This document shows, one piece after another, positions 3,779-41,365 of a stretch of DNA of 41,848 nucleotides. Source of the DNA: Bacteroidota bacterium (GTDB lineage: Bacteria > Bacteroidota > Bacteroidia > AKYH767-A > JAHEYN01); assembly GCA_023251555.1 (NCBI GenBank), contig JAHEYN010000023.1, positions 1 through 41,848 of the forward strand. Direction: 5' to 3'. The notes below the pieces were generated by a model. The model saw nothing but the letters and a program-made list of their open reading frames with translations. It was not told the DNA's origin and searched no databases. Each line of letters starts with the position of its first letter. The first letter of the stretch is position 1. A program made the translations under genes and the position numbers.

Positions 3779-5251
3779 TCAGTAGTAAGTCAGCCTGATG
3801 ACGTCTGCAATATGCTTGGCAAAACGGATGACCTGCCGGCTGTAGCCGTATTCATTGTCATACCATACATAGAGTACTATGTGTTTTTTGTCTTTGGCAA
3901 CAATGGTGGCAGGGCTGTCAAAAATGCTTGCACAGGGGTTGCCCACGCAGTCGGTTGAAACCAGTTCCTGGGAATAGGAGTATTGTATTTGCTCAATGAG
4001 ATCTCCCTTCAGGGCGGCATCTCTCATGATCTCGTTCACATCATCCCTTGACGTTTCTTTTTTTACCGTAAGGCTTAGGATGGCGAGAGAAACATCAGGA
4101 GTGGGGACCCTCACGGCATTTCCGGTGAGTTTTCCTTCGAGATGGGGAAGCACTTTTGCAACTGCTTTGTCGGCACCGGTTTCTGTAATGACCATGTTCA
4201 CCGCAGCAGAACGGCCCCGGCGGAATTTCTTATGATAATTATCCAGGAGGTTTTGATCGTTGGTGTATGAATGGATGGTTTCAATATGTCCTCCTTCGAT
4301 TCCCAGCAACCGGTCAATCACGGCGAGAACAGGCACGATAGCATTGGTGGTGCATGATGCGGAAGAGAAAATGTTTTCTTCCGGCTTGTATTTGTTCTGG
4401 TTAATCCCGAATACAATATTGGGGATATCGCCTTTTCCGGGGGCTGTAAGTAAAACTTTCCCGACACCCTTGGACTCAAGGTGCTTTGCAAGGCCTTCTC
4501 TTTCCCTTGTAGCACCTGTGTTATCTATGAGAAGTGCGTCGTCAATACCGAAAGCGGTGTAGTCTATTTTAGCAGGGTCGCTTGCGCCGATCATGTGAAT
4601 GGTATGGCCGTTTACGATAAGCGCCTTGTTTTCGTAATCTTCGATCACGGTACCCGGAAACGGGCCATGTACGGAATCAGCCCTGAGTAATTCCGCTCTT
4701 TTCCTGATATCTGTTTCGCTGTTATTTCTTGTTACGATGGCGCGGATCCTCAGCTGTTCCCCTTTTCCCGCCTGTGAAATAAGTTCCCTTGTGAGCAGGC
4801 GCCCTATGCGGCCGAAGCCGTAAAGCACAACATCTTTGGGTACAAGGGTGCGCTTGTCCTGGCCGATAAATCCTTTTAATTTATCACCAATAAAGCCGGC
4901 TTTGGTTTTGTACTTTCCTTTTTCAGCCAGCCATTCGGCCCCGAGCCTTCCTATGTCAATCCTTGCCGGTGCCAGGTTCAGCAGGGATATTTCCCTGGCC
5001 AGTTCCATGGTGTCTATGATATTAATGGGCTGCTTTACGATATTTTTTGCGTAAAGATGGAGGTTCAGGATCTCGCTGGTGCTGCGGTCAACGAGCTGAT
5101 TTCTGAAGATGATCAGCTCTACCGATTTGTCAAACCATAAATGACCGATGACACTGATGAGTTCAATGGCAGCTTTCTCATACTCCAGCCATTCTTTCAT
5201 CTGGCTCTCATAGTTTTTTGCAGCCTCGGATTTGGTAAGTTCAGAGATCAT
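3779..5251 (-). CDS. gap: Glyceraldehyde-3-phosphate dehydrogenase, long form
   Basis: A 490-residue GAPDH in which the classical enzyme begins near residue 139: NAD-binding GFGRIG at 145-150, catalytic Cys300 in SASCTTN, the IHSYTNDQ segment with the general-base His, and WYDNEYGYS near the C-terminus. The first ~135 residues are an extra, mostly helical region not found in the ~335-residue glycolytic enzyme; long GAPDHs of this build are common in Bacteroidota. The enzyme interconverts G3P and 1,3-bisphosphoglycerate. Cofactor preference and direction (glycolytic or gluconeogenic) are not resolved. It lies 39 bp after rpoD and 51 bp before hpt. Confidence 0.94.
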   Translation of the reverse strand: MISELTKSEAAKNYESQMKEWLEYEKAAIELISVIGHLWFDKSVELIIFRNQLVDRSTSEILNLHLYAKNIVKQPINIIDTMELAREISLLNLAPARIDIGRLGAEWLAEKGKYKTKAGFIGDKLKGFIGQDKRTLVPKDVVLYGFGRIGRLLTRELISQAGKGEQLRIRAIVTRNNSETDIRKRAELLRADSVHGPFPGTVIEDYENKALIVNGHTIHMIGASDPAKIDYTAFGIDDALLIDNTGATREREGLAKHLESKGVGKVLLTAPGKGDIPNIVFGINQNKYKPEENIFSSASCTTNAIVPVLAVIDRLLGIEGGHIETIHSYTNDQNLLDNYHKKFRRGRSAAVNMVITETGADKAVAKVLPHLEGKLTGNAVRVPTPDVSLAILSLTVKKETSRDDVNEIMRDAALKGDLIEQIQYSYSQELVSTDCVGNPCASIFDSPATIVAKDKKHIVLYVWYDNEYGYSRQVIRFAKHIADVIRLTYY

Positions 5252-5290: not shown

Positions 5291-6154
5291 TTAGCCGAGG
5301 TAGGCCTTCAGCAGGCGGCTCCTTGACTTATGCCGCAGTCTCCGGATGGCTTTTTCCTTGATTTGGCGTACCCGCTCGCGGGTAAGGTCGAACTTGGCTC
5401 CTATTTCTTCAAGCGTCAGCCCGTGATTCATGCCGATACCGAAAAACAATTTTATAACTTCTCTCTCTCTTTCAGTGAGTGTATTTAAAGACCGTTCAAT
5501 TTCTTTCTGGAGCGACTGGGATATAAGCAGGTTATCCGCACGGGGGGAATCCTGGTTTTCAAGCACGTCAATAAGGCTGTTGTCTTCTCCCTGAACGAAA
5601 GGCGCATCCATGGATACATGTTTACCTGAAACACGCTGGGTGTCGGCCACCTTTTCCACGGGCAGGTCAAGGACGGCTGCAAGCTCTTCTGTGGACGGCT
5701 CTCTTTCGAACTGCTGCTCGAGTTTCGAATAAGCCTTGCTGATTTTGTTGAGGGAGCCCACCTGGTTAAGCGGGAGCCTTACAATCCTTGACTGCTCTGC
5801 AAGCGCCTGAAGGATAGACTGGCGGATCCACCATACGGCATAGGAGATGAATTTAAATCCTCTTGTCTCATCGAATCTTTTTGCAGCCTTGATGAGCCCC
5901 AGGTTACCTTCGTTGATGAGGTCGGGCAGGCTGAGTCCCTGGTTCTGGTATTGCTTGGCAACAGATACGACAAACCTCAGGTTAGCCTTGGTAAGGCGGT
6001 CAAGCGCACGCTGGTCGCCTTCCCTGATTTTCCTTGCGAGAATTACCTCTTCTTCGGCACTGATAAGCTCCTCTCTTCCTATTTCCTGCAGGTATTTCTC
6101 AAGGGACTGGCTCTCCCTGTTCGTGATGGATTTGGTTATCTTTAGCTGCCTCAT
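5291..6154 (-). CDS. rpoD: Primary RNA polymerase sigma factor (sigma-70/SigA type)
   Basis: A 287-residue group 1 sigma factor. Region 1.2 starts at [10 protein letters not shown]; region 2 has LVKANLR-like [32 protein letters not shown] and the -10-reading helix [15 protein letters not shown]; region 3 and region 4 ([29 protein letters not shown], given here only as its location near the C-terminus) follow. Region 1.1 is missing, as in other Bacteroidota primary sigma factors, whose promoters read TTG-N19-21-TAnnTTTG; several such boxes occur in this window. It is preceded by its own consensus-like promoter and followed by gap 39 bp downstream. Confidence 0.97.
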
Positions 6155-6273: not shown

Positions 6274-7731
6274 TTACAACCCGAAAGCATAGTAAGCCCT
6301 TGATCCGTTGGGATACAACCCTTCTATCAGAACCCCGCCTTTTTTGTTGCGGAGAACCTCCACCAGGTCATTGTTATTGGTGATTTCTTTCCGGTCAACA
6401 TGGGTAATGATAAACCCTTCTTTAATACCTGCCATCCTGAGTTTTCCGCCTGAGAGGGATTTTATCCTTACGCCCCCGTTAATCCTGAGGGAGCTCAGTT
6501 CGTCAGGGGAAACATTTTCAAACTCAGCTCCGAGCAGGGATGTGATTTCATTTCCACTCTTTTTCACAACCTCGGTGGTGCCGTTTTTATTCCTCAGAAC
6601 AATGGGAAGAAGCATCTCTTTATCCTCCCTGACAATGGCGAGAGTTACTTTGTCGCCCGGGCGGAACCGTCCAACCTGCTCCTGCAGCTGGGAAGGAGTG
6701 TTGACCTCTGTTTCCCCTACTTTCAGTATGACATCTCCTTCGCGGAGTCCTGCATCTTTGGCAGAGCCGCCTTCCATCAATCCTGCAACATAGATACCTT
6801 TGATATGCTTTATTTTCTTTTCCTCGGCAAGTTTGTAATCTACCTCCTTGATGTTGATGCCCAGAAAACCGCGCTGGACTTCGCCGTACTCAACCAGGTC
6901 GTCCACCACTTTTTTGACGATGTTTACGGGGATGGCAAAAGAGTAGCCGGTATATGACCCCGTATTGGAAGCTATGGCAGCATTGATTCCCACCAGTTCG
7001 CCCCGGGTGTTTACCAGTGCTCCGCCGCTGTTGCCGGGGTTTACGGCTGCATCTGTCTGGATGAAGGACTCTATCTTATACTGGTTGTTCAGGATGTTGA
7101 TGTCTCTCGCCTTGGCGCTTACAATTCCCGCAGTTACTGTGGAAGTGAGGTTAAACGGGTTTCCTACAGCGAGCACCCATTCACCGACTTTCAGGTCGTC
7201 GGAATTGCCATAGCCGATGAAAGGCAGTCCTTTCTCTTCGATCTTAAGCAGTGCTATATCCGTGGAAGGATCGGTACCAATGATTTTTGCCGTAAAAATT
7301 CTTTTATCATTCAGCGTTACTTCCACCTTTTTCGCGTTTTGGACCACGTGGTTGTTAGTCACAATGAATCCGTCGTCGCTGATAATCACTCCCGACCCGG
7401 TGGCTTCCCGCTGCTCAGGCTGGTTATACCTCCGGTCTCCCCAGAAAAAACTCCCGAATGGATCAAATAATGGCTGGTAGGCATCACCGGCCTCTTCATA
7501 GGTGGATTTTACGTGAACAACAGCGTGCACTGACATTTCCGCCGCTTTTGTAAAATCCACTGCCGCTTCCGGGGGGGCTGTGTACGAAGCAAAATGTACG
7601 GGCTGCTTTAAACCGCCCTGTGGCTTTGGGTATGGCTCCCCTGAAAATGATTTGTAAACAAATGCCCCGCCGGTTCCTCCGGCTATGGCGATCATCAGAA
7701 GGATTGCATTTTTTTTAATGGAGTTAAGCAT
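6274..7731 (-). CDS. degP: DegP/HtrA-type periplasmic serine protease
   Basis: A 485-residue Do-family protease. Residues 8-27 form an uncleaved or cleaved signal/anchor segment. The trypsin-like domain has the triad His128 (TNNHVV), Asp158 (DPSTDIALLK) and Ser235 (NPGNSGGALV). Two PDZ domains follow, about residues 265-365 (with GIYVAGLMEGGSAKDAGL) and 390-480. Proteins of this family degrade or refold damaged envelope proteins. It is divergent from the sigma-region-2-like membrane protein gene, sharing a 173-bp intergenic region. Its own promoter is not clear: TATTATTTG about 30 bp upstream has one base too many for the -7 consensus. Confidence 0.95.
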   Translation of the reverse strand: MLNSIKKNAILLMIAIAGGTGGAFVYKSFSGEPYPKPQGGLKQPVHFASYTAPPEAAVDFTKAAEMSVHAVVHVKSTYEEAGDAYQPLFDPFGSFFWGDRRYNQPEQREATGSGVIISDDGFIVTNNHVVQNAKKVEVTLNDKRIFTAKIIGTDPSTDIALLKIEEKGLPFIGYGNSDDLKVGEWVLAVGNPFNLTSTVTAGIVSAKARDINILNNQYKIESFIQTDAAVNPGNSGGALVNTRGELVGINAAIASNTGSYTGYSFAIPVNIVKKVVDDLVEYGEVQRGFLGINIKEVDYKLAEEKKIKHIKGIYVAGLMEGGSAKDAGLREGDVILKVGETEVNTPSQLQEQVGRFRPGDKVTLAIVREDKEMLLPIVLRNKNGTTEVVKKSGNEITSLLGAEFENVSPDELSSLRINGGVRIKSLSGGKLRMAGIKEGFIITHVDRKEITNNNDLVEVLRNKKGGVLIEGLYPNGSRAYYAFGL

Positions 7732-7849
7732 AATTCAGGTTTTAATTTTTTCTGTATCAGGATACAAATAATATGCCACCGGGCATAGCAGGGAAAAAAA
7801 GATAAATTTTGTCAGGGAAAAGTTTCATTACAGTTATAACAAACGAACT

Positions 7850-7881
7850 TTGGTTATACAATATTGCATATTTAAATTTTG
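7850..7881 (+). promoter_or_regulatory. Probable promoter of the sigma-region-2-like membrane protein gene
   Basis: TTG at 7850-7852, a 20-bp spacer and TAAATTTTG at 7873-7881 resemble the phylum consensus, with one extra T inside the -7 box. A start near 7888 would give a short leader before the ATG at 7905 and would exclude the upstream in-frame ATG at 7809. Confidence 0.45.
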
Positions 7882-7904
7882 ACTTATTTTTACAGGGCAA
7901 TCAA

Positions 7905-8969
7905 ATGTATTTTTCTGCCAGAAAATATTCCGATGCAGAACTGCTTGCCGGCCTTAAAAGCGGGAACAGGAAGCTGCTGCTTTATCTTTTTAAGAGATAC
8001 AGGAGGCATGTAAAAAGATTTGTTATCTCGAACGGGGGCAATGCTTCCGATGCTAATCCCCTTCTCGGGGATGCTCTCCTGAAGGTGTGGAATGACGCAG
8101 CAAAAAATGTACTTCTCCCCGGCACACAAACTGAAGCATACCTCCTTGGTGTGGTGGAAGAGCTATGGAGAAATAAACACGATGAGATAAGTATCCGCAA
8201 TTATATTGAACAGCGCACGATCCCCAAAGTAAATCTGAGAATTGTTCCGGCTGTCCTTGGCATCCTTCTGCTGTCGGCCATTGGGCTATGGTGGTATATG
8301 GATAACGAGCCTGTGGAAAGGATTGCCGGAAAGGAAAATGTGTCAGACCTTTCCATTAAATCTGACAGCATGAATGTGCCGAAAAACACTCCCGCAGAAC
8401 GGCCCCGGCCCGAAAAGTTATACAAAGCTCCGGCCGTCTCTCTCAGGAGTCAGCCCCGTGATAGCATAACTGCATTGTCACACGCTGTTTCCGCTGCTGC
8501 CGGGAGCGAAAAGGCAGCCATCTCCGACAGTACGGGCGAGGATAATGCAATGGCAGCTGCGGAAGATATTGTTGTCAGGAAGGATGAACTGATGGTAACC
8601 CGAAGCATCAGGGTCCTTGTTATCGGGGAAGAATCCGGCCAGGAAAGCACTCCCCCGGAAAGCACTCTTGCAGGAGAAACCGCCGCAAAATTGAATCCCG
8701 AAGCCGCTCTCCCGCAAGAAGAGAAAGAGCCGGCAGGCTATTCCGTGGAGTTCTGGAAATCCCCCATCAATTACAGGGGCTATAAAATGGGAAAGGGAAA
8801 AATCATTGTGTACGGGCTGGAGTATCCTGAGCTGACAAAACTGTATCTTGTCAGGGGAAATTATTACCTCGAAAATGCACAGGCCTATTATCAACTCCGG
8901 CAGGGAAGTGAATTCCAGGTTTTTTACAGGGTTAATGACAGTGCCATCCTCGCACAGCTGAAGAAATGA
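7905..8969 (+). CDS. Membrane-anchored protein with sigma-70 region 2-like N-terminus
   Basis: The frame is open from 7809, but the ATG at 7905 is preferred because a promoter-like sequence lies just before it and the recognisable domain starts there (354 residues). Residues 8-92 align by eye with region 2 of ECF sigma factors: DAELLAGLKSGN, LLLYLFKRYRRHVKRF, the LLGDALLKVW helix and EAYLLGVVEELWRNK. No region 4 helix-turn-helix follows. Instead, residues 112-131 are one transmembrane helix (LRIVPAVLGILLLSAIGLWW), then about 145 residues rich in Ser, Pro, Glu and Ala, then a compact C-terminal domain (about 279-354) with EFWKSPINYRGYKMGKGKI. Predicted topology is sigma-like part inside, C-terminal domain in the periplasm. 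It overlaps dapF by 4 bp. Whether the sigma-like part binds RNA polymerase or is degenerate is unknown. Confidence 0.6.
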   Translation: MYFSARKYSDAELLAGLKSGNRKLLLYLFKRYRRHVKRFVISNGGNASDANPLLGDALLKVWNDAAKNVLLPGTQTEAYLLGVVEELWRNKHDEISIRNYIEQRTIPKVNLRIVPAVLGILLLSAIGLWWYMDNEPVERIAGKENVSDLSIKSDSMNVPKNTPAERPRPEKLYKAPAVSLRSQPRDSITALSHAVSAAAGSEKAAISDSTGEDNAMAAAEDIVVRKDELMVTRSIRVLVIGEESGQESTPPESTLAGETAAKLNPEAALPQEEKEPAGYSVEFWKSPINYRGYKMGKGKIIVYGLEYPELTKLYLVRGNYYLENAQAYYQLRQGSEFQVFYRVNDSAILAQLKK

Positions 8970-9772
8970 AAATACATTTTTATAAATATCACGGTACGGG
9001 CAATGATTTTATCATCATTGACGACAGGAATATGCGAATCAAGAGTCCCGGTAAAAAGCTTGCATCGGCGCTTTGCGACAGGCGTTTCGGAATCGGAGCC
9101 GACGGACTGATGTTTCTCCGGAAGCAGCAGGGTTACGACTTCAGGATGGTTTATTATAATTCGGACGGGAAAGAAAGCTCCATGTGCGGGAACGGCGGGC
9201 GGTGCATAGTGGCATTCGCAAAGCAAACCGGAATTCTACGGGGCAAAGAAGCTTCTTTCATTGCAATGGATGGTGTCCATAAAGCCATTCTTTTTAACAA
9301 TAAATGGGAGCGTGAAATGAAAATCAGGCTGCAGATGTCCGATGTCGGGAATATTCTGGAAGAGAACGAAGGCTGTGTGATGGATACAGGCTCTCCGCAT
9401 CTTGTGCAGTTTGTGAATGATATCCTGGAGAAGGATGTCACCCGGGAGGGGAGAGCGATCCGAAACAGCGCCCTCTTCAAAAAGAAAGGAATCAATGTGA
9501 ACTTTGTGCAGGAGGAACAGGGCAGGATTTTTGTCAGGACTTACGAGAGAGGCGTTGAAGCCGAGACCCTTTCTTGCGGAACAGGCGTTATTGCCGCCGC
9601 CCTTGCCTCGGCTTATGCCGGCCTCATAAAAACAGGGACGCAAAATAAAGTCAGGGTATCCACCCTCGGCGGGGAGCTTCTCGTGTGCTTTCAGAAAAAA
9701 GGCAGCGGATTCATGGATATATGGCTTGAAGGTCCCGCCACTTTTGTTTTTAAGGGAGAAGTAAATGTCTGA
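8966..9772 (+). CDS. dapF: Diaminopimelate epimerase
   Basis: A 268-residue DapF that interconverts LL- and meso-diaminopimelate for lysine and peptidoglycan synthesis. Both catalytic cysteines are present: Cys74 in MCGNGGRC and Cys204 in LSCGTG; the N-terminal GTGNDFIIID and the TGSPHLV segment are also typical. The ATG overlaps the previous stop codon (ATGA), suggesting translational coupling. The next gene overlaps its end by 8 bp. Confidence 0.97.
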   Translation: MKIHFYKYHGTGNDFIIIDDRNMRIKSPGKKLASALCDRRFGIGADGLMFLRKQQGYDFRMVYYNSDGKESSMCGNGGRCIVAFAKQTGILRGKEASFIAMDGVHKAILFNNKWEREMKIRLQMSDVGNILEENEGCVMDTGSPHLVQFVNDILEKDVTREGRAIRNSALFKKKGINVNFVQEEQGRIFVRTYERGVEAETLSCGTGVIAAALASAYAGLIKTGTQNKVRVSTLGGELLVCFQKKGSGFMDIWLEGPATFVFKGEVNV

Positions 9773-10322
9773 GGCTTTTATTTTCAGGGATGTGAAAGCC
9801 GCTTCCGCAGAAATCCTCCCGGAAGGCATCTTCATCATGCTCATCAATGCCTGTGACAGGCCTCCTCATCTCGCCCTGCTGACAGGAAGTAAAATATATG
9901 CGCTCAGCGCAAAAGGCCGTCAGGTAATGTTTCCCCTTGAAAAGCAACTCAGGCTGATAAAATCCAGAAAAATAAAATCATTATTTATAAAATTAAGTAA
10001 CAACATATATATATCTGATAATCAATTATTTAAAAAAGCCGAAAACAGTGTACTTTTATATGAAAAGGCAGCTCCCGGCATTGCTACCTGTCTTTCGCCG
10101 GTAAAGTTATTTTGCGCCAGTGTTTTTGGGGTGGATGTTTCCGGGGTGAATTTCATTTTTGATCTTCTGCCATTGCTGCAAAAAGATAATCTTGTTTCAG
10201 GTTATTATCATTTTTGGATGGAAGATGTTCTGATTGGAGGGAACTTTCATTTCCAGAAATACACCATGCAGGATATTTACGAAAGCATACGCCGCATGGA
10301 GCCTCACGAAATTATCGCCTGA
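9765..10322 (+). CDS. Protein of unknown function in dapF operon
   Basis: I do not recognise this 185-residue protein. It has no signal peptide or membrane helix and looks like a soluble alpha/beta protein: an N-terminal half with several beta-like stretches (GIFIMLINA, HLALLTGSKIYALS), a basic patch (LRLIKSRKIKSLFIK), and a C-terminal half with helical stretches and HFWMEDVLIGGNFHF. It overlaps dapF by 8 bp and shares TGATG with the following GNAT gene, so it is almost certainly translated. The stretch around 9955-10040 is clearly more AT-rich than its surroundings, which could reflect weak constraint there. Confidence 0.7.
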   Translation: MSEAFIFRDVKAASAEILPEGIFIMLINACDRPPHLALLTGSKIYALSAKGRQVMFPLEKQLRLIKSRKIKSLFIKLSNNIYISDNQLFKKAENSVLLYEKAAPGIATCLSPVKLFCASVFGVDVSGVNFIFDLLPLLQKDNLVSGYYHFWMEDVLIGGNFHFQKYTMQDIYESIRRMEPHEIIA

Positions 10323-40903: not shown

Positions 40904-41365
40904 TTAATCAATCCATTCAAACAGGTGTTCTTTTTTATATTCGGTTTGAAATTTTTCCAGCAATCTAAGGTATTCCTCTTTAAAAGACTTCTTTTTATGA
41001 TGTTCTTTCTGGCTCATGATGTAAGCAATTACATTGTTCAGCTGGGAATGCCCGTATGAAAAAGCTCCAAATCCCGATTGCCACTGGAATTTCAATGGGC
41101 AGAATTTATTCTTCAGAATATATTCGTTGCTTGATTTCTTGACTTCCCTCACAAGGTCAGATAAACAGCATGTTGGCTTCATGCCGATAAAAAAATGAAT
41201 ATGATCCGGCATGCTGTTTATGGCAAGCATCTTCTGGCCTTTGTTTTGAACTATACCGGTTATGTATTTATGCAATTGGTTTTCCCAGGAAGCGCAAATA
41301 AGTGAACTTCTTCCCCTTACTGCAAAAACTACATGGATATATATTTGCGTGTATGTGTCAGGCAT
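40904..41365 (-). CDS. IS200/IS605-type Y1 transposase, likely RAYT
   Basis: A 153-residue HUH single-strand transposase. The HUH motif is His55-X-His57 in MPDHIHFF, and the nucleophile is probably Tyr115 in NVIAYIMSQKEHHKKKSF; GFGAFSYGHSQ and the C-terminal LFEWID are typical of the large Bacteroidota group. No tnpB is present, and the gene is flanked by small palindromes rather than by clear IS ends, as for REP-associated tyrosine transposases (RAYTs), which act on ssDNA hairpins. It lies 50 bp after a tRNA-Arg gene. The palindrome array starts about 85 bp upstream of its start codon. Confidence 0.9.
   Translation of the reverse strand: MPDTYTQIYIHVVFAVRGRSSLICASWENQLHKYITGIVQNKGQKMLAINSMPDHIHFFIGMKPTCCLSDLVREVKKSSNEYILKNKFCPLKFQWQSGFGAFSYGHSQLNNVIAYIMSQKEHHKKKSFKEEYLRLLEKFQTEYKKEHLFEWID

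What the first reader, a model, noticed from the sequence alone, without database searches (positions are those of the whole stretch)
7905..8969. Sigma-region-2-like domain fused to a transmembrane helix and a periplasmic domain, facing degP
The N-terminal ~90 residues read like ECF sigma region 2, but region 4 is missing and is replaced by one membrane helix, a flexible linker and a conserved-looking C-terminal domain. This would tether a sigma-like core-binding domain to the membrane. The gene is divergent from a DegP protease and translationally coupled to dapF, which suggests an envelope link. It could be a decoy that titrates RNA polymerase, a latent factor released by proteolysis, or a structural reuse of the fold.
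Basis: partly seen in the sequence, partly recalled or inferred. Interest (0 to 1): 0.6.

Follow-up and report, generated by a model that had tools for sequence, protein, structure and literature searches.

The report
Membrane-tethered half sigma factor beside degP
This gene is what is left after a stress-response sigma factor and its membrane-bound inhibitor, which sit as two neighbouring genes in related bacteria, merged into one protein and lost half of the sigma factor, so it looks more like a re-used or dying part than a working gene switch.

Summary
Observation confirmed. The ORF at 7905-8969 (354 aa, ATGA overlap with dapF, divergent from degP) has an N-terminal sigma region 2 domain: NCBIfam sigma models E 1e-5; a sigma2 profile built from neighbours without the window, E 6e-21; its AlphaFold model best matches E. 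coli sigmaE region 2. It has no sigma4. One TM helix, a disordered linker and a Bacteroidota-specific periplasmic beta domain without Pfam or PDB match follow.
Relatives explain it. In the same place, other Bacteroidia carry two genes: an ECF sigma factor and an anti-sigma-like ASD-TM-beta-domain protein (36 of 150 loci). Others carry only TM+beta domain (100), or one fused ORF with sigma2+sigma4 (6). Only the window and its sister genus have sigma2-TM-beta domain. So it is a fused sigma/anti-sigma operon that lost sigma4 and the anti-sigma domain. In the window the core-binding motif is also gone (DAED...LQD became DANP...LGD), although the sister keeps it. In the window's order the separate sigma proteins have also lost promoter-recognition charges.
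Most likely it is a repurposed or decaying sigma2 module on an envelope protein, not a working sigma. Fusions of sigma to a membrane anti-sigma are known (IutY, ECF52, Dma3); the sigma4-less form is a new variant.

The parts
7905..8969 (+). Whole ORF: sigma2 - TM - linker - periplasmic beta domain, 354 aa
   Evidence: ortholog of same architecture in G001 (L002/L111), 39% identity over nearly the full length
7914..8186 (+). Sigma region 2 (residues ~4-94)
   Evidence: NCBIfam E 1e-5; family sigma2 HMM E 6e-21; model pLDDT 88.6 matching sigmaE region 2 in the PDB
8049..8072 (+). Region 2.2 motif, residues 49-56 DANPLLGD (DAED-I-L-Q-D in intact relatives): core-binding positions D, Q replaced by P, G
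   Evidence: alignment A2
8187..8234 (+). Fusion joint / pre-TM segment; sigma4 and the anti-sigma domain of the two-gene form are missing here
   Evidence: comparison with L003, L009-L012, L004-L006
8235..8300 (+). Transmembrane helix, residues ~111-132
   Evidence: hydropathy 2.1 over 19 residues; same position as the TM of the neighbouring anti-sigma-like proteins
8301..8558 (+). Low-complexity, probably disordered periplasmic linker, residues ~133-218
   Evidence: 19% identity to the sister ortholog with 13 gaps, against 36% in sigma2 and 49% in the C-terminal domain
8559..8624 (+). Conserved 'VVRKDEL' strand of the periplasmic domain
   Evidence: A1/A3 alignments; strand in the model
8733..8966 (+). 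Periplasmic beta domain core, residues 277-354, invariant E.W.SP.N..G...........G
   Evidence: no Pfam or PDB relative
8966..9772 (+). dapF (diaminopimelate epimerase), start overlaps the stop of the fusion gene
   Evidence: dapF directly downstream in 53 of 60 relatives
6274..7731 (-). degP/HtrA-type protease (trypsin domain + PDZ domains), divergent neighbour
   Evidence: Pfam Trypsin_2 E 6e-36 and PDZ domains; divergent neighbour in 48 of 60 relatives
7732..7904 (.). Shared divergent intergenic region (173 bp)

Best explanation
The gene is a collapsed sigma/anti-sigma operon. In the ancestor an ECF sigma factor gene and an anti-sigma-like gene (cytoplasmic ASD, TM helix, linker, periplasmic beta domain) lay between degP and dapF. 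In the window's lineage they fused, and sigma4 plus the ASD were lost. What remains is a cytoplasmic sigma2 fold tied by one TM helix to the periplasmic beta domain (anatomy and order of events: shown by comparison). The conserved working part is most likely the periplasmic beta domain, acting in envelope homeostasis together with DegP (inferred from synteny and from 100 loci that keep TM+beta domain without any sigma). The sigma2 module in this copy no longer directs promoters and probably does not bind core RNA polymerase (inferred from lost motifs). It is kept as a re-used cytoplasmic protein-binding or anchoring module (inferred).
For: Separate sigma and anti-sigma-like genes at the same place in 36 of 150 loci, full fusions with sigma4 in 6, the sigma4-less fusion only in the window and G001 (the 150 loci include duplicates of the same genome). 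In a tree of the beta domain, window + G001 group together (95/70), next to the sigma2+sigma4 fusions of family f5 (91/73), within a supported clade of the window's order (99/98). Region 2.2 D/Q/E positions are D-Q-D/E in the intact sigma factors outside the order, but P-G-D in the window. The sigma4 recognition helix net charge is +4.1 in 16 sigma proteins outside the order and 0.0 in 9 of the order (p 2e-5, not corrected for relatedness). Sigma2 is more conserved than the linker between window and G001 (36% against 19%), and a congeneric f3 pair has dN/dS about 0.14 in sigma2 (dS 2.0, near saturation). The sigma2 fold is intact in the model.
Against: The sister G001 keeps the D-Q-E core-binding motif, so in this small family the sigma2 may still touch RNA polymerase. 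Only two members of the sigma4-less form are known and their dS is saturated, so purifying selection on sigma2 in the window itself is not proven; slow decay is possible. G001 is not next to degP: its degP is on another contig, and its neighbour is a SurA/PpiC-like protein as read from sequence. The function of the beta domain is unknown. A dapF tree did not group window and G001, although the AU test does not reject grouping them (p 0.24).
Confidence: 0.58

Rival explanations
1. Decaying remnant: the sigma2 part is non-functional leftover of the fusion on the way to the TM+beta-domain form found in most relatives.
For: TM+beta-domain-only is the commonest form (100 of 150 loci), so sigma loss is frequent; core-binding positions are lost in the window.
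Against: 94 codons open with an intact predicted fold; sigma2 nearly twice as conserved as the linker against G001; the sister keeps the D-Q-E motif.
Confidence: 0.22
2. Membrane-held decoy: sigma2 binds and titrates core RNA polymerase or its beta' clamp at the membrane under some condition.
For: Sigma2 is the main core-binding region of sigma (established knowledge); G001 retains D-L-L-Q-E; the membrane tether is real.
Against: Window has P-L-L-G-D at these positions and DANP instead of DAED; sigma factors lacking DAED (ECF43) do not work until phosphorylated (PMC8999054).
Confidence: 0.1
3. Latent transcription factor released by intramembrane proteolysis (as in IutY), sigma2 alone acting on -10-only promoters or with a partner sigma4 protein.
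For: The genome has one M50 site-2 protease; IutY and ECF48/52/53 are fused sigma/anti-sigma proteins, IutY activated by Prc and RseP (PMC8999054); B. theta Dma3 carries a sigma domain at the N-terminus of an anti-sigma (PMC13088901).
Against: No sigma4, eroded region 2.2-2.4 in the window, and no anti-sigma domain left to inhibit. A site-2 protease is found in all 14 control genomes, so its presence is not informative.
Confidence: 0.1

Closest known systems
ECF sigma factor fused to its membrane anti-sigma (IutY/ECF243; ECF48, ECF52, ECF53), review PMC8999054
   Same: N-terminal sigma domain and C-terminal former anti-sigma with TM and extracytoplasmic domain in one chain
   Different: Those keep sigma2 and sigma4 and an anti-sigma part; here sigma4 and the anti-sigma domain are gone and, in the window, the core-binding motif too; the periplasmic domain is unrelated to any Pfam family found
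Dma family, Dma3 of Bacteroides thetaiotaomicron (PMC13088901); Reo of EcfO-Reo (PMC9308784, PMC13114119)
   Same: Bacteroidota; ASD-TM-disordered tether-C-terminal beta domain plan in the two-gene relatives; Dma3 has a sigma domain at its N-terminus
   Different: Dma/Reo end in an outer-membrane beta-barrel; here the C-terminal domain is a small 8-strand domain with strands of mostly 5-8 residues; the locus (degP/dapF) differs. Sequence homology could not be tested (the Dma sequences were not at hand)
sigmaE-RseA-DegP envelope stress system of E. coli
   Same: Sigma2 closest in structure to sigmaE region 2; two-gene relatives are sigma/anti-sigma pairs next to degP; one ASD weakly hits RseA_N (E 0.04, below cut-off)
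   Different: No RseB; degP is the physical neighbour but was not shown to be a target; in the window no functional sigma remains

Membership tests
ECF sigma factor | Sigma region 2 fold | tested here: met
ECF sigma factor | Sigma region 4 | tested here: not met
   no sigma4 hit in the window ORF while sigma4 is found in separate and fused relatives
ECF sigma factor | Region 2.2 core-binding residues (DAED, D..QE) | tested here: not met
   window DANP-LLGD; sister G001 DAAD-LLQE
ECF sigma factor | Binds core RNA polymerase and starts transcription | not testable with these tools
   needs a pull-down and in vitro transcription
Sigma fused to membrane anti-sigma (IutY/ECF52 type) | Sigma part and TM/extracytoplasmic part in one chain | tested here: met
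   fusion origin from two neighbouring genes
Sigma fused to membrane anti-sigma (IutY/ECF52 type) | Complete sigma2-sigma4 plus anti-sigma domain | tested here: not met
   both sigma4 and ASD missing; f5 relatives keep sigma4 (L004-L006)
Sigma fused to membrane anti-sigma (IutY/ECF52 type) | Activation by regulated proteolysis | not testable with these tools
   only a site-2 protease gene was found in the genome
Dma / Dma3 | C-terminal outer-membrane beta-barrel at the end of a long disordered tether | tested here: inconclusive
   disordered linker yes; C-terminal domain has 8 mostly short strands, no PDB match
Dma / Dma3 | ECF21 sigma partner | not tested
   no ECF21 or Dma sequences at hand
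sigmaE/RseA/DegP system | Anti-sigma with RseA-type N-domain | tested here: inconclusive
   one relative hits RseA_N at E 0.04, below cut-off; others do not; the window has no ASD
sigmaE/RseA/DegP system | degP regulated by the sigma factor | not testable with these tools
   only adjacency shown; no shared ECF promoter motif found for degP

The most novel reading that the evidence does not exclude
Across the window's whole order the degP-linked sigma factor has lost the charges for promoter recognition, and mostly those for core binding, yet is kept under purifying selection. That would be a sigma fold turned into a non-transcriptional, membrane-linked signalling or scaffold module, reduced in the window to a tethered sigma2 that still governs an envelope (DegP) function.
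Probability: 0.35. Interest if true: 0.68.

Novelty: new variant of a known kind. Interest (0 to 1): 0.47.

Why it matters
It shows in one locus the steps from a sigma/anti-sigma pair to a fused protein to a sigma-free envelope protein, and points to a Bacteroidota envelope module (degP - sigma - anti-sigma/beta domain - dapF) for which no description was found in the library. If the eroded sigma proteins still work, they would be a rare case of a sigma fold used for something other than transcription initiation. The conserved periplasmic domain, without Pfam or PDB relatives, is a concrete target.

Tried and rejected
Pfam alone would have dismissed sigma2 (below cut-off). Single-sequence PDB search gave only noise. 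The CTD profile found nothing in PDB by sequence, and its model found no fold match. An ECF-type autoregulated promoter shared by the sigma gene and degP was sought: canonical two-gene loci have a conserved TTTACCWWT box (9 of 17, shuffled rate 0.6%), but it looks like the Bacteroidota housekeeping -7 element TAnnTTTG (known from general knowledge), so it was not used as evidence. dapF tree: does not group window and G001, noisy. The idea that G001's missing degP linkage refutes the envelope link was dropped, because its degP exists elsewhere and most other relatives keep the linkage. Papers: PNAS 2024 on Dma1 and the ECF reclassification paper are not held.

Full report
What is there. The ORF starts at ATG 7905 and stops at 8969 (354 aa). 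It overlaps the dapF start by ATGA and is divergent from degP (6274-7731, trypsin plus PDZ domains), which in turn lies beside the primary sigma gene (5291-6154) and GAPDH (3779-5251).

Sigma region 2 is real. The protein alone reaches NCBIfam sigma-factor models at E 1e-5, and Pfam Sigma70_r2 only below its cut-off (E 0.015). A sigma2 HMM built from 25 separate sigma ORFs of related loci, without the window, finds residues ~4-94 at E 6e-21 and no sigma4. AlphaFold with 30 relatives gives a confident four-helix model (pLDDT 88.6). The first 26 PDB ranks are all sigma region 2, led by E. coli sigmaE region 2 (probability 1.00, TM up to 0.81, though Foldseek E-values are only 0.035 or worse). 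A sequence profile search agrees (sigmaE region 2, E 1e-7 to 1e-5; that profile contains intact sigma relatives).

The rest. One TM helix at about 111-132, a low-complexity linker to ~218, then a conserved periplasmic domain: a VVRKDEL strand and a core with invariant E.W.SP.N..G. It models as 8 strands plus helices (pLDDT 85.9) and has no Pfam, PDB-sequence or PDB-fold match. It occurs in 123 of 396 sampled genomes of the class, all Bacteroidota by record titles where names are given.

What relatives show. At the same place (degP divergent on one side, dapF on the other; 44 of 60 relatives have both, 48 degP, 53 dapF) there are several architectures (150 loci including duplicates): 100 with TM + beta domain only; 36 with two genes, an ECF-like sigma (about 170-190 aa) followed by an ASD-TM-linker-beta-domain protein; 5 with ASD but no sigma; 6 with one ORF carrying sigma2, sigma4, TM and beta domain; and the sigma2-only fusion, found just in the window and in G001 (L002, L111 and L123 are the same contig). 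The anti-sigma-like N-domain (..LIDRYL.G.LSG.EL..F..RL..D..F...V......GI...EL) is what Bacteroidota anti-sigmas look like to me, but it has only weak, sub-threshold library hits (RseA_N E 0.04, zf-HC2 0.02), so 'anti-sigma' rests mostly on gene order and domain plan.

Order of events. In the beta-domain tree, window and G001 group (95/70) beside the full fusions of family f5 (91/73), all inside a supported clade of the window's order (99/98). The simplest reading is: two genes, then a fusion with sigma2+sigma4, then loss of sigma4 and ASD in family f1. A dapF tree does not group window and G001, but the AU test does not reject grouping them (p 0.24).

Does the sigma part still work? The intact sigma proteins outside the order keep D..QD/E in region 2.2 and KNLW in 2.3-2.4. 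The window has P..GD and EELW; G001 keeps D..QE; f3 proteins lost it; f5 is partial. The sigma4 recognition helix has net charge +4.1 in 16 sigma proteins outside the order and 0.0 in 9 within it (related sequences, so the p value of 2e-5 overstates the number of independent events). Pfam agrees: intact ones score 1e-9 to 1e-12 for Sigma70_r2, those of the order barely or not at all. By the review PMC8999054 the DAED acidic residues of sigma2.2 contact the beta' subunit, and ECF43 factors lacking them are inactive until phosphorylated; the window has DANP. Yet the domain is not random: sigma2 36% identical to G001 against 19% in the linker, and a congeneric f3 pair has dN/dS about 0.14, with dS near saturation.

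Known relatives of the idea. Sigma factors fused to a membrane anti-sigma exist: IutY (ECF243, released by Prc and RseP) and ECF48/52/53 (PMC8999054). In Bacteroidota, Dma proteins have ASD-TM-disordered tether-beta-barrel, and Dma3 carries a sigma domain at its N-terminus (PMC13088901); Reo spans all compartments (PMC13114119). So the fusion as such is a known kind. The sigma4-less, ASD-less form next to degP was not found in the literature held here.

Verdict. The most likely meaning is a collapsed sigma/anti-sigma operon whose periplasmic domain is the working part and whose sigma2 is reused or fading. A decoy or latent sigma factor is unlikely in the window, and open for the sister genus.

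Noticed in passing
L204:642-2313, L205:3952-5683, L206:4028-5762 (family f4 of the same order): An ECF sigma gene is followed by one ORF with an anti-sigma-like N-domain, a TM helix and a DegP-like trypsin domain: an anti-sigma-like protein carrying its own protease domain, at loci not next to dapF.
   Followed up: partly
L203:3779-5240 and L207:3268-4684: Further sigma + anti-sigma-like pairs whose C-terminal end resembles the beta domain but falls below the profile threshold, away from degP/dapF: the family is wider than counted here.
   Followed up: no
upstream of the sigma gene in L077, L083, L085, L093, L099-L102, L107, L108: Conserved TTTACCWWT box 15-45 bp before the sigma start, often with TCGATTAA behind it (9 of 17 within 90 bp against 0.6% in shuffles); probably a housekeeping -7 element, but the flanking conservation is unexplained.
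   Followed up: partly
window 9765-10322 (+): 185-aa protein between dapF and a GNAT gene, conserved in the same place in many relatives, with no Pfam match.
   Followed up: no
window 40904-41365 (-): IS200-like Y1 transposase gene (Pfam Y1_Tnp E 5e-24) near the end of the window.
   Followed up: no
G001 locus L111/L002: In the sister genus the fusion gene is not next to degP but next to a SurA/PpiC-like periplasmic chaperone gene; its degP is on another contig.
   Followed up: partly
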